Positions 33,387-40,581 of a stretch of DNA of 40,581 bases are shown here, piece after piece. The translations under genes and the position numbers were made by a program. Every line of letters begins with the position of its first letter. The first letter of the stretch is position 1. Below the pieces are notes generated by a model that made no database searches, was not told where the DNA came from, and was given only the letters and a program-made list of their open reading frames with translations. Origin of the DNA: an uncultured Coleofasciculus sp. (GTDB taxonomy: Bacteria > Cyanobacteriota > Cyanobacteriia > Cyanobacteriales > Coleofasciculaceae); assembly GCA_937127375.1 (NCBI GenBank), contig CAKZMA010000281.1, forward strand, positions 1-40,581, given 5' to 3'.

Positions 33387-34583
33387 TTAAAATTTAACAA
33401 ATGAGTGGTTTTTGTTTTGTTGAGGTTTGTTCAATTGTGCTAATTGAGCGTGAATCTTTTTAAAGTCCCTGATGTGCTGGTCACTGAGGAAAGCCGTAAG
33501 GGGTTCCCAGGTATTTTCACTCGATTTAGCCCTCATAATTTCAGTATTAGAAGGTAAATGAATTAGGGATAATTGTCCAGCTTTTAGGGTGGCTTGGTAA
33601 TTCCTTCCTTTGAGACAGTTTGTCTTTTGGCTAGCCAGCAAATTCTTGAGAACTGTGGCAACAAACTGAGTGCGATGCCATTGAGTGGAAGAGACTTGAG
33701 TCGAGTTTGTAGAGCGGCTATCAGAGGGAGGTGTTTTTGAGTTACACAATTGCTGGATTTGCAGATAATCCCTGGAAGAATCATAGCTGACGTTTCGATA
33801 CTTTTGCAGTCCCCTTAGGGTATAAGCCTTTCCCAGTCGGGAACCTTTAAAAGCGAGTCCCTTAAAGCCATAGCTGATACCAGTAAGGTTTCCGGAGTCG
33901 TTGGCAGAAATGCGGACATTCACATCGGCTGTGGTTAGTTGTTTAATTAGGTTAGGTAACGTCAGAGGAATAGAGGTGAAGTGGTCAATTGTTTCCTGGA
34001 GATGCTGCTTGATAGGTTTCTCTGGGGGAGATAAACGCAAACCCCTTTCGTATTGGAATGTCTCCCGTCGGCGTCGCCGTTCCTGTCCAGTGGAAGGAGC
34101 CTGTTTTTCACTGTCCCAACTTGGTGTTACTGGGGTAAGATTATACTGTTTTTCTAGTTCTCTGAGGGTTCGTTCAGAACGCTTCCAGTCCATCCAGGAG
34201 GATACGGTTAATCCATCGGTGATTTGCACCCGATTGACTACAATATGGAAATGCGATCGCACTTTACCTTCTTCGGTGGTTGTGTCGTTATGAGAGTAGA
34301 GAACCCACTGGCATTCAGAACATCCGATTTTGTTCAGGTAGGTTTGAGCAAATTGCAAGACTTGGAGTGTAGAGAGTTTTTCGTCGGGGTGGGGACTTAA
34401 GGAGATGTGAGCAACGGGAAATTTGACTCGGTTGGAACGGCGGGAAACCAGGTGGAAGGCTTGAGAGAATTCTTCTCTGGTGGTGCCTAGCATATTGCCA
34501 CCCAGGTATTGGGCGTCGGGTTTGCTTTCAATATATCGTAGCAGACTGTTGAAGTCGGAGCCTTTGGTGATTTTGCCAATCAT
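33387..34583 (-). CDS. Mobilisation relaxase (MobA/VirD2-like)
   Basis: This 398-residue protein has the N-terminal relaxase fold: a candidate nicking tyrosine Tyr17 in LLRYIESKPDA, His98 in LYSHND, and the metal-binding HFHIVVNRV (His111, His113, Asn117). A basic region (RRRRRETFQYERG) follows and the C-terminal half is of unknown function. Relaxases nick at oriT and lead a single DNA strand into a recipient during conjugation. Its ATG overlaps the stop of the upstream accessory gene by 4 bp (ATGA), showing translational coupling. No coupling protein or type IV secretion genes are seen, so the element would be mobilisable rather than self-transmissible, or is a remnant. It converges on devA. 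Confidence 0.85.
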   Translation of the reverse strand: MIGKITKGSDFNSLLRYIESKPDAQYLGGNMLGTTREEFSQAFHLVSRRSNRVKFPVAHISLSPHPDEKLSTLQVLQFAQTYLNKIGCSECQWVLYSHNDTTTEEGKVRSHFHIVVNRVQITDGLTVSSWMDWKRSERTLRELEKQYNLTPVTPSWDSEKQAPSTGQERRRRRETFQYERGLRLSPPEKPIKQHLQETIDHFTSIPLTLPNLIKQLTTADVNVRISANDSGNLTGISYGFKGLAFKGSRLGKAYTLRGLQKYRNVSYDSSRDYLQIQQLCNSKTPPSDSRSTNSTQVSSTQWHRTQFVATVLKNLLASQKTNCLKGRNYQATLKAGQLSLIHLPSNTEIMRAKSSENTWEPLTAFLSDQHIRDFKKIHAQLAQLNKPQQNKNHSFVKF

Positions 34584-34930
34584 TTTTCGTCTAGGGATTC
34601 AGGTGGGTTGAGGAGTTGGGATTGTACAGTTTTGAGTAAGTCCAGGACTTGTGCAACGGCTTCTGTGGCTTCAGCGATATTGGAAATGTCTTGTCCGGAT
34701 GTTACAGCCGCGTTCATCGCTAAAACCTGTTGGTTGAGACTGTTGCTGATTTGACCCAGTTGGAGGACTAAGTGGTAGTTGACCTCTGGTGGTTGAGTGG
34801 GTATTTCTCGCCGGGAAGCGCAGCGTCTGAGATATTCAGAAAGACTTATCCCGGCTTTTTGAGCTTTAATCAGCCAGCTTTTTTTCTCAGTCGGTGTGAC
34901 TCGGATTTTAATTTCAGTTGTTTTGTTCAT
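34580..34930 (-). CDS. MobC-like ribbon-helix-helix mobilisation accessory protein
   Basis: The 116-residue protein starts TTEIKIRVTPTEKKSWLIKAQ and continues GISLSEYLRRCA, the ribbon-helix-helix pattern of MobC/relaxosome accessory proteins. The rest, including NYHLVLQLGQISNSLNQQV, fits the MobC helical tail. Such proteins bind oriT and help the relaxase. The gene overlaps the relaxase gene by 4 bp, and oriT is expected just upstream, to the right in this window. Confidence 0.85.
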   Translation of the reverse strand: MNKTTEIKIRVTPTEKKSWLIKAQKAGISLSEYLRRCASRREIPTQPPEVNYHLVLQLGQISNSLNQQVLAMNAAVTSGQDISNIAEATEAVAQVLDLLKTVQSQLLNPPESLDEK

Positions 34931-37468: not shown

Positions 37469-39271
37469 TTAAATCGTCTTAAGTAACCCCATCAACTTAT
37501 ACTTGCGAGCGTGAGTCGTCATCAACTGAGTTCGGTAATCATTCCATTCACTCTGTTGCCCTAACTGGAAATAAGCAGCGCGAGCTTTTTGCAACCACTC
37601 CACCGCTGCATCGTAAGCCTTCGCTTTACCCTGATTTATGATATCTTCTGCATGGTGACGAGCTTGTTCAATCACCCATTCTGGGCGGTGGGAAATCGCC
37701 ACATCCATTACCCGATGGATTAAGGGGTCACGACAATAACGTCCTAATGCGGCAATGGCATCATCAATTAACTTTTCGTGCAAGAAGATATCCACCTGGG
37801 CTTCTTGGGTACTCCAATTATCACATTGCCGCAGATGTTCAAGCAAGTCGCCTTGCACGGTTAACCAGTTCTCCCCGGCTAAATGCTGCACGCTTTGATA
37901 ATCTTTGAAAGATGGCTGTGCTTTAAAGGCTTCTATTCGGGCAGAAAGTGCCGCTTTTTGTTCACCCAACCCCTCGGCTAAGTTACTCGTCCAGTCTGCC
38001 AGTTGATAGCGATGGATGCCCAAGGGTTTATACTGGCTTAGGGTTGCCCAATAGGAATGAGATGGCATGGATTCTGGAAGTGTTAGTCCATGTTGAGCAA
38101 TTAAGAGAGCTTCAGGTATGGCATCTTGTTCTCGCAGTGCTTTGGCGACTTCTAATGCTTGTTCAACACAGGTGAGTTGATTTTTTTGTGCCATCACCTC
38201 ATCTACACGCCCCAGACGAGTTAACATCGTCAAATATTCTGGTTCAATCGCTTCAGCACGGGCAAGATTGAGGTATTCTTCCTGCCGTTGTTGACGTTCT
38301 AAGATAGAGAGGCGTATCCGAGTAAGTTGGTCAGCATCATCGGGACGATTATCCTCCCACAAATCTGTTGATTCTCCCCGTAAGACAGCCTGTAATGCCA
38401 AATCATCCCACCCTTGACGCAAGGCGGCTGAAGCTAAGTTAAACGTTGCTCCCAACCGATCTTGCCAGTCTTCTAAATTGATTTGTAAATCGACTTCCTC
38501 ACCGGGTTGAAATTCAGCGCTTAAAATTGCCTCAGCCCAAACTGGATCAAGGAGTGACATTAAATAATCACTATCCCCACCATACTCAACTAGGTCATCC
38601 CAATCTTCGGTACAAGCTTGGGTAATGGCTTCTAGAATAACCAGCGCATTATTGCCATCGCCTTGTTCACTAAAGGCTTGAGCCTGTGCCAAAATATCGG
38701 GTAATTCCTCTTCAATCGGGTTATCCTCATATCCCTCTTCCCAATAACGCAAGGCATTTCTCATCAGAGACTTAACCTGAGAGCGATAGGGTTGGGGATT
38801 TACGGATGTTTGACGTTTGGCTCTGATTGGAGCTTGGGGAATGGGTTGGGTGATTTGGGTAACAATGTTATCAATATCGTCAATTAACTCTGGCTGCTTG
38901 GCGACCAATTTTTGGATCAGCCCTTGTGTTTGGACAAGATTGAGTTGATCTAGTAATTGCTCTAGGGAAGGGCGCTCTTGGATAGTTTCGGGTTGGTGCA
39001 GACAAAGCAGTGCTGTGGCGACAATATGCTTGCACCATCCTTCAAAAGTATAGGCACAGGTGCAATTTGCCTGTTTAATTCCAGCCCGGTCAAATTGGAG
39101 GTTGACACGGTAGGGTTCAACTTCGTTGCCTTCTACGGTAGCTTGGATGGTATTGCCTCTGGAGCAACAGCTCACCACTGCACCGGAGTGATAGTACTGT
39201 TCACCACGCTGGAATACTTTGGGTGTTGTGCGATCGCGGTAATGGGTTTCAAGTAGCTCAGGTATTGACAT
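37469..39271 (-). CDS. SWIM zinc-finger domain protein
   Basis: The 600-residue protein has an N-terminal SWIM zinc finger: Cys70, Cys72, Cys80 and His82 in ANCTCAYTFEGWCKHIVA (CxCx7CxH). After it come a Gln-rich linker and a long helical region with TPR-like character (LNLARAEAIEPEYLTMLTRLGR; ALIAQHGLTLPES), ending YKLMGLLKTI. SWIM domains bind DNA or protein; stand-alone members of this shape are common in cyanobacteria and often uncharacterised. It heads the leftward unit with the GNAT-like and hypothetical genes. A second truncated SWIM gene lies just upstream of it (39291-39470). Confidence 0.85.
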   Translation of the reverse strand: MSIPELLETHYRDRTTPKVFQRGEQYYHSGAVVSCCSRGNTIQATVEGNEVEPYRVNLQFDRAGIKQANCTCAYTFEGWCKHIVATALLCLHQPETIQERPSLEQLLDQLNLVQTQGLIQKLVAKQPELIDDIDNIVTQITQPIPQAPIRAKRQTSVNPQPYRSQVKSLMRNALRYWEEGYEDNPIEEELPDILAQAQAFSEQGDGNNALVILEAITQACTEDWDDLVEYGGDSDYLMSLLDPVWAEAILSAEFQPGEEVDLQINLEDWQDRLGATFNLASAALRQGWDDLALQAVLRGESTDLWEDNRPDDADQLTRIRLSILERQQRQEEYLNLARAEAIEPEYLTMLTRLGRVDEVMAQKNQLTCVEQALEVAKALREQDAIPEALLIAQHGLTLPESMPSHSYWATLSQYKPLGIHRYQLADWTSNLAEGLGEQKAALSARIEAFKAQPSFKDYQSVQHLAGENWLTVQGDLLEHLRQCDNWSTQEAQVDIFLHEKLIDDAIAALGRYCRDPLIHRVMDVAISHRPEWVIEQARHHAEDIINQGKAKAYDAAVEWLQKARAAYFQLGQQSEWNDYRTQLMTTHARKYKLMGLLKTI

Positions 39272-39487: not shown

Positions 39488-40581
39488 TTGTTGATGCGAT
39501 TAAGTTTAGCTCAGTTGAGGGCGGCTTGGGGACAGGTGCGTCGAGGGAGTCGGAGTGCGGGGATTGATGGGATTACGACGGATTGGTTTGCTTTGGTAGT
39601 GAATGAGCAACTGGCTGTGTTGCAGCATCAATTGCAACAGGAGTGTTATTATCCTTGTCCAGCTAAAGGGTTTTATTTGAATAAAGCTAAGGGGGGTAAA
39701 CGGTTAATTGGAATTCCGGTGGTGCGGGATAGAATTGTTCAGCGTTGGCTGTTGGATGAGATTTATTTACCTCTGGAATATGCCTTTCTTGATTGTAGTT
39801 ATGCCTATCGCCCAGGGCGGGGAATTCAGATGGCGGTGCAGCATCTATTTTCGTTTTACCAGTTTCAACCGGCTTGGGTGTTGAAGGCGGATATTACTCA
39901 GTTTTTTGATCATCTTTGCCATGCGCTGTTGCTGACGGATTTAGAAGATTTGGGGGTAGAACCAATTCTTCTGCAACTGATTGAGGCACAGTTAAATGCT
40001 GGAATTGTGATGGGTAAACAGCGCTTCTTTCCGAGTAAGGGAGTATTGCAGGGGGCGATATTGTCGGGGGCGTTGGCTTTCTTTGTATTTGACCGAGTTT
40101 GACCGCCATTGTTTGAGTCAGGGAATTAATTTGGTGCGCTATGGGGATGATTTTGTGGTGGTGGCTGGGGATTGGCTACAAGTTAATCGCGCGTTGGAGC
40201 AAATTACGGCGTGGTTGGCGGATATTTATCTGACATTACAACCAGAAAAGACGCAGATTTTTGCCCCGGATCAGGGGTTTACGTTTTTGGGGTATCGGTT
40301 TGAACAGGGAAGGGTAACTGCACCACCGCCTGTGGTAACGGTGAAGCCGGGGACAACGGCGGAGTCGGGAATGGTTTCGCGGCGGGAGGTGGGGAAGCCG
40401 ATTCAGTTGGCGTCTCGTCCCCCGAAGGCGTGCAGCATTGTTAAAAGGGTGACGTTTCCAGTTGCAAATTCTGATCATTTTTGGCAGGAACCAATGACGA
40501 CACTTTATGTTACGGATCAAGGGGCGTATTTGAAGGTACAGCATCAGCAGTTTTTGGTCTATTGTCAGCAGGAATTGCGGT
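39488..40581 (+). pseudogene. cas1: Reverse transcriptase-Cas1 fusion, frameshifted and cut by the window end
   Basis: Residues 1-198 are a group II intron-like reverse transcriptase: SRSAGIDGIT, GKRLIGIPVVRDRIVQR, LKADITQFFD (catalytic Asp135) and GVLQGAILSG. The frame then hits TGA at 40100. From 40083 the next frame continues without a stop (LYLTEFDRHCL, RYGDDFVVV catalytic box, LTLQPEKTQIF, FTFLGYRF). A Pro-rich linker follows, and from 40494 MTTLYVTDQGAYLKV, the first strand of Cas1. One extra T around 40082-40084 accounts for the break. RT-Cas1 proteins acquire CRISPR spacers, including from RNA, in type III systems. The start is a TTG at 39488, 7-8 bases after GGGAGGGG; an ATG at 39494 is the alternative. 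The frameshift could be mutation, sequencing error or programmed. Confidence 0.88.

What the first reader, a model, noticed from the sequence alone, without database searches (positions are those of the whole stretch)
39488..40581. Reverse transcriptase-Cas1 fusion interrupted by a one-base frameshift
Both halves are well preserved, including the catalytic Asp in LKADI and the YGDD box, and the second frame is stop-free to the window end. A single extra T in TTTCTTTG (40078-40085) explains the break exactly at the GALA(N)LYLTEFDR junction. A recent loss of RNA-spacer acquisition, a sequencing error or recoding are all possible. The slippery-looking T-rich site makes recoding worth testing.
Basis: seen in the sequence. 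Interest (0 to 1): 0.72.

Follow-up and report, generated by a model that had tools for sequence, protein, structure and literature searches.

The report
Broken CRISPR RT-Cas1, embedded Cas1 start
A cyanobacterial gene that fuses a reverse transcriptase to the CRISPR integrase Cas1 is broken inside its reverse-transcriptase half, and comparison with about 50 relatives suggests that these genes carry a conserved second start that would let the cell make Cas1 on its own.

Summary
Window 39488-40581 encodes the reverse-transcriptase (RT) half and the first 29 residues of Cas1 of an RT-Cas1 fusion, split into two frames at 40079-40082. The rest of Cas1 lies on contig C1057 of the same genome, which abuts the window end in frame, followed by an 8-repeat CRISPR array. 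The lesion is more than one extra T: an Asn codon (AAT/AAC in all 23 orthologues read there) has become TTCT, so the Asn is lost in every frame. No orthologue has a shift site. Recoding is unlikely; a recent RT-inactivating mutation is likeliest; assembly error cannot be excluded without reads.

New observation: the Cas1 domain begins at an ATG (40494) present in 46 of 46 cyanobacterial fusions surveyed, with a Shine-Dalgarno-like motif before it in 44 of 53 genes tested (17.2 expected from protein sequence and codon use; p=5.5e-5 after thinning to 18 diverse genes). Two alphaproteobacterial fusions and the solved Cas6-RT-Cas1 lack that Met. I infer an embedded start for free Cas1, so this frameshift probably removes RT but spares Cas1. 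Translation from it was not tested. The frameshift alone is ordinary; the embedded start is the interesting part.

The parts
39494..40102 (+). RT half (up to motif 4), frame 1, ending at TGA 40100-40102; LKADI at 39881-39895
   Evidence: 73.5% identical to the Allocoleopsis franciscana RT-Cas1
40079..40082 (+). lesion: TTCT in place of the AAT/AAC codon of an invariant Asn; net +1
   Evidence: comparison with orthologues
40083..40493 (+). rest of RT (YGDD at 40140-40151) and RT-Cas1 linker, frame 2
40486..40489 (+). SD-like AGGA, four bases before the Cas1-start ATG (CAGGAACCA ATG)
40494..40581 (+). start of the Cas1 domain (invariant Met, MTTLYVTDQGAY), continued on C1057 (L007:3-920)
37469..39271 (-). 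divergent SWIM zinc-finger protein gene beside the RT start; only a weak partial match in one other RT-Cas1 locus (L068)

Best explanation
This is a cyanobacterial RT-Cas1 adaptation gene (RT-CRISPR-3 / branch-5 type) whose RT half has recently been inactivated by a short local mutation that replaced the conserved Asn codon of RT motif 4 with four bases. Translation from 39494 would stop at 40102 and give an inactive RT fragment. The Cas1 half stays open through the adjoining contig. It begins at a conserved ATG with an SD-like motif, an embedded start that in intact relatives would give free Cas1 beside the RT-Cas1 fusion; here free Cas1 would be the only integrase product, able to add DNA-derived spacers to the neighbouring 8-repeat array with a Cas2 supplied in trans. 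Shown: the two frames, the lesion in the assembly, the abutting Cas1 and array, conservation of the ATG, and conservation of the motif beyond protein need. Inferred: the contig join, that the lesion is biological, that the embedded start is used, that Cas1 still works.
For: Frames and domains. Cas1 continuation and 8 identical 35-nt repeats on C1057, the only such array in the genome. The Asn is invariant in all 23 orthologues read at the site; TTCT is found only here. dN/dS well below 1 in RT-N, RT-C/linker and Cas1 in comparisons that include the window, so any loss is recent. Embedded start: ATG in 46 of 46 fusions in a survey that did not require it and in five further plasmid copies; the only invariant Met column in 33 thinned genes; SD-like motif before it in 28 of 33 against 11 of 311 other internal ATGs; Gln at -3 is CAG in 20 of 22, top of 35 Gln columns; with protein and codon use held fixed, 44 of 53 observed against 17.2 expected, 13 of 18 against 5.5 in the most thinned set, p=5.5e-5. 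An RT-less paralogue in G024 (L067:4774) starts at the homologous Met. Two alphaproteobacterial fusions and 7KFT lack a Met there. Other loci have RT broken with Cas1 full length: L064, L069, L133, L134, L138, L142. M. mediterranea Cas1 with its RT deleted still takes up DNA spacers (PMC11014452).
Against: No reads: the lesion lies about 500 bases from a contig end of a 1596-contig genome. The SD-like motif is only four bases from the ATG, and its predicted pairing in the window gene is not exceptional (38% of windows are as strong). A general 5-codon synonymous scan ranks windows around the start 11th to 28th of 660, not first. Nine of 53 genes lack the motif, among them Gloeothece, Pseudanabaena and G360. 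RT-only against Cas1-only lesions are 7 to 2, not significant. Orthologues are related, so p-values are approximate.
Confidence: 0.55

Rival explanations
1. Assembly or sequencing artefact: the organism has an intact RT-Cas1, and TTCT is a consensus error near a contig end.
For: Fragmented genome with the contig edge about 500 bases away; the flanking codons look selected; no read data were available.
Against: The change is a two-base replacement plus one base, not a homopolymer slip in the ancestral sequence. I noticed no other split gene in about 54 kb of ORFs of at least 100 aa on four contigs of this genome, by inspection only. Broken RT-Cas1 genes also occur in a finished record (Nostoc TCL26-01 plasmid).
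Confidence: 0.27
2. Programmed +1 recoding joins the frames and makes an active RT-Cas1.
For: The frames overlap; GTT TGA C at the stop resembles the RF2 site CTT TGA C (own knowledge); both halves remain under purifying selection.
Against: Orthologues read straight through with no shift site. GTT is a poor slip codon (own knowledge). A shift at 40102 would give FFVFDRV in place of NLYLTEF; a shift at the lesion gives Phe or Ser at the invariant Asn.
Confidence: 0.04
3. Plain pseudogene: the whole RT-Cas1 locus is decaying and neither half is made or used.
For: The nSTAND partner gene is only a 3' remnant on C1057; no cas2 is adjacent.
Against: Cas1 is open over its whole length with dN/dS about 0.08-0.13 against its three nearest relatives; all 8 repeats are identical; many intact orthologues also lack an adjacent cas2.
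Confidence: 0.25
4. The ATG and SD-like motif in RT-Cas1 fusions are relics of the fusion, held by protein needs rather than used as a start.
For: Trp at -4 and acidic residues at -2 are conserved as amino acids, so part of the motif is protein-driven; the general synonymous scan does not single the region out.
Against: Codon choice at -3 exceeds protein and codon-usage expectation across diverged genes, with Lys, Gln and Arg codons nearly all AAG, CAG and AGG.
Confidence: 0.35

Closest known systems
RT-CRISPR-3 clade of cyanobacterial RT-Cas1 (Toro 2017, PMC5541045); branch 5 (Silas 2017, PMC5513706)
   Same: RT fused to Cas1 in cyanobacteria, array beside it, often a separate second cas1
   Different: RT half broken; no adjacent cas2; the companion cas1-cas2 was not found linked, in a fragmented genome
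Marinomonas mediterranea Cas6-RT-Cas1/Cas2
   Same: RT and Cas1 domains; removal of RT leaves DNA spacer uptake (PMC11014452)
   Different: Carries a Cas6 domain; the related solved Thiomicrospira Cas6-RT-Cas1 (7KFT) has no Met at the Cas1 start
Internally translated Cas11 (for example archaeal type I-B, PMC11899642)
   Same: A second protein from an in-frame start inside a cas gene
   Different: There it is the small subunit of an interference complex; here it would be the Cas1 integrase inside RT-cas1

Membership tests
RT-Cas1 fusion (RT-CRISPR-3) | Group II-intron-like RT with its motifs, including (F/Y)xDD | tested here: met
   RVT_1 in two complementary pieces; LKADI and YGDD present
RT-Cas1 fusion (RT-CRISPR-3) | Cas1 fused C-terminally in one open frame | tested here: not met
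   RT and Cas1 are out of frame at 40079-40082 in this copy; in frame in most orthologues
RT-Cas1 fusion (RT-CRISPR-3) | CRISPR array close to the gene | tested here: met
   8 repeats of 35 nt starting 198 nt after cas1 on C1057; the contig join is inferred
RT-Cas1 fusion (RT-CRISPR-3) | Clade placement in an RT tree | not tested
   Inferred from cyanobacterial orthologues; no tree against the published clades was built
Working RT-Cas1 RNA-spacer system | Intact RT domain including the motif 4 Asn | tested here: not met
   Frame broken and Asn codon replaced
Working RT-Cas1 RNA-spacer system | Cas2 partner | tested here: inconclusive
   None adjacent; two cas2 elsewhere, each beside another cas1
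Working RT-Cas1 RNA-spacer system | Type III effector in the genome | tested here: met
   Cas10/Cmr2 matches over the cut-off on C206, C1048 and C644; linkage unknown
Programmed +1 frameshift gene | Conserved slippery site and overlapping frames in orthologues | tested here: not met
Gene with embedded internal start | Conserved in-frame start with a ribosome-binding signal beyond protein need | tested here: met
   the general synonymous scan is less clear
Gene with embedded internal start | Shorter product made in cells | not testable with these tools
   needs proteomics or ribosome profiling

The most novel reading that the evidence does not exclude
Cyanobacterial RT-cas1 genes are genes within genes: a conserved internal start makes free Cas1 alongside the RT-Cas1 fusion, giving mixed integrase complexes, so that RT can be lost (as here) without losing Cas1.
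Probability: 0.5. Interest if true: 0.68.

Novelty: new variant of a known kind. Interest (0 to 1): 0.48.

Why it matters
In the solved Cas6-RT-Cas1/Cas2 complex the RT lobes hang on Cas1, and in M. mediterranea RT hinders integration of RNA when it is not coupled to cDNA synthesis (PMC11014452). A built-in source of RT-free Cas1 would let cells mix both forms, and would explain why broken RT halves can persist next to an intact Cas1. It can be tested directly in cultured strains such as Allocoleopsis franciscana PCC 7113 or Anabaena cylindrica PCC 7122.

Tried and rejected
Recoding: considered and rejected, because orthologues have no shift site and the Asn is lost in all frames. An unlinked C1057: unlikely, because it holds the only Cas1 of this genome whose start is cut off by a contig edge, and it continues the frame exactly. 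Missing cas2 as a sign of decay: rejected, because many intact orthologues lack an adjacent cas2, though Gloeothece and Pseudanabaena keep it. Spacer targets: nothing convincing in phage records. A general 5-codon synonymous scan did not single the start region out; the motif-specific tests did. The gene set was picked with a pattern that requires Met, so it does not count as evidence for the Met itself (searches do); it also holds one duplicate without the motif (L139 = L077). Paper searches found nothing on RT-Cas1 with Shine-Dalgarno, and nothing on internal starts in RT-Cas1, but only open-licence papers were covered.

Full report
The finding. The window is contig C281 of a fragmented cyanobacterial genome (9.5 Mb in 1596 contigs, about 90% complete). 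Its right end carries two overlapping plus-strand frames, 39488-40102 and 40083 to the end, which match complementary parts of the RT profile RVT_1. The second frame ends with the first 29 residues of Cas1. C1057 of the same genome begins with the rest of Cas1 (L007:3-920). Laid on the orthologues, the two contigs meet with no gap and no overlap, and the joining codon TGT is the Cys that relatives encode as TGC. After cas1 come eight identical 35-nt CRISPR repeats, found nowhere else in this genome. The contig join is an inference, but a strong one.

The lesion. Twenty-three orthologues, from the same family to other families of the order, read Gly-Ala-Leu-Ala-Asn-Leu-Tyr at the break (Trp for Tyr after it in one), with AAT or AAC for Asn. 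The window has GCT, then TTCT, then TTG TAT. So the net change is +1, but the Asn codon has been replaced as well. In the frames available the residue would be Phe or Ser, whichever way a ribosome shifted. No orthologue shows overlapping frames or a shift site here. G082 (L069) is also frame-shifted, some 14 codons upstream, by what looks like a deletion between short direct repeats (my reading); that is a separate event.

Age and reality. In pairwise comparisons with the nearest relatives, where dS could be computed, dN/dS is 0.13-0.16 for the N-terminal RT part, 0.12-0.28 for the RT-C/linker part and 0.08-0.13 for Cas1. This is purifying selection, as among intact relatives, with a slight excess of unusual replacements in the RT part (5 against 2-3). 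Any loss is recent. Over about 54 kb of ORFs of at least 100 aa on the four contigs I hold, I saw no other split gene, by inspection only. Without reads I put about 27% on an artefact.

An embedded start. The Cas1 domain begins at ATG 40494, preceded by CAGGAACCA. In a survey that did not require Met, all 46 cyanobacterial RT-Cas1 fusions have ATG at this place, and so do five further plasmid copies placed by alignment (some may be the same strains as genomes already counted). In 33 thinned genes it is the only invariant Met column. An AGGA/GGAG/GAGG motif lies in the 14 bases upstream in 28 of 33, against 11 of 311 other internal ATGs. The Gln at -3 uses CAG in 20 of 22 genes, the highest of 35 Gln columns, whose mean is 38%. 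When each protein sequence is kept and codons are redrawn from the gene's own usage, 17.2 of 53 genes should carry the motif; 44 do. After thinning to 18 genes less than 74% identical the figures are 13 against 5.5, p=5.5e-5. The genes are still related, so this p-value is approximate. Two alphaproteobacterial fusions (Azospirillum, Tistrella) and the Cas6-RT-Cas1 of 7KFT have no Met there. A close RT-less Cas1 in G024 (L067:4774) starts at the homologous Met, with a stop codon just upstream. Weak points: the spacing to the ATG is short, predicted pairing in the window gene is ordinary, a general synonymous scan ranks the region only 11th to 28th of 660 windows, and some genes, such as those of Gloeothece and Pseudanabaena, lack the motif.

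What follows for this gene. The frameshift removes a working RT but leaves the embedded start and the whole Cas1 frame. Six other loci have RT broken and Cas1 full length (L064, L069, L133, L134, L138, L142); two have Cas1 broken with RT intact (L014, L102); two have both damaged (L135, L136). With the window that is 7 to 2, suggestive only. In M. mediterranea, Cas1 without its RT takes up DNA spacers, and RT hinders integration of RNA when not coupled to cDNA synthesis (PMC11014452). Cas2 would have to come from elsewhere; two cas2 genes exist on other contigs. Type III effector genes are present.

Place among known systems. By sequence and taxonomy this is most likely the cyanobacterial RT-Cas1 type of Toro 2017 (RT-CRISPR-3) and Silas 2017 (branch 5), which often has a second, separate cas1; I did not build a tree against their clades. 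As a fusion the present copy fails the single-frame test. Internal starts inside cas genes are known for Cas11 (PMC11899642). I found no report of one in RT-Cas1, in a library limited to open-licence papers.

Noticed in passing
L012:5557-9141; also L013, L014, L062-L067, L071; remnant L007:3053-4030: A protein of about 1200 aa with an N-terminal helix-turn-helix-like part (my reading), an nSTAND/NACHT-like NTPase and HEAT-like repeats sits beside cyanobacterial RT-Cas1 or its RT-less relative, mostly divergently. In 386 genomes of the phylum all 8 genomes with strong hits have it near Cas1 or RT-Cas1. NACHT and HTH are listed among adaptation-linked domains in PMC10910872, so it may be known.
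   Followed up: partly
L075, L076, L078, L079 (divergent from RT-Cas1): Nostocaceae-like genomes carry a 230-250 aa protein sharing only the N-terminal part of that NTPase, 140-235 bases upstream of RT-Cas1; a candidate regulator.
   Followed up: no
window 33387-34930: Relaxase (MobA/VirD2-like) and NikA-like mobilisation genes about 4.5 kb from RT-Cas1; RT-Cas1 orthologues are common on cyanobacterial plasmids.
   Followed up: no
L064:9554 and L142:2752: Two separate loci have RT homology starting at the same residue (aa 105 of the query), with unrelated sequence upstream.
   Followed up: no
L125 / L133 (Nostoc sp. TCL26-01 plasmid): RT half of an RT-Cas1 gene interrupted by an IS4-family transposase gene while linker and Cas1 stay open; no cas gene listed there in the record's gene table.
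   Followed up: partly
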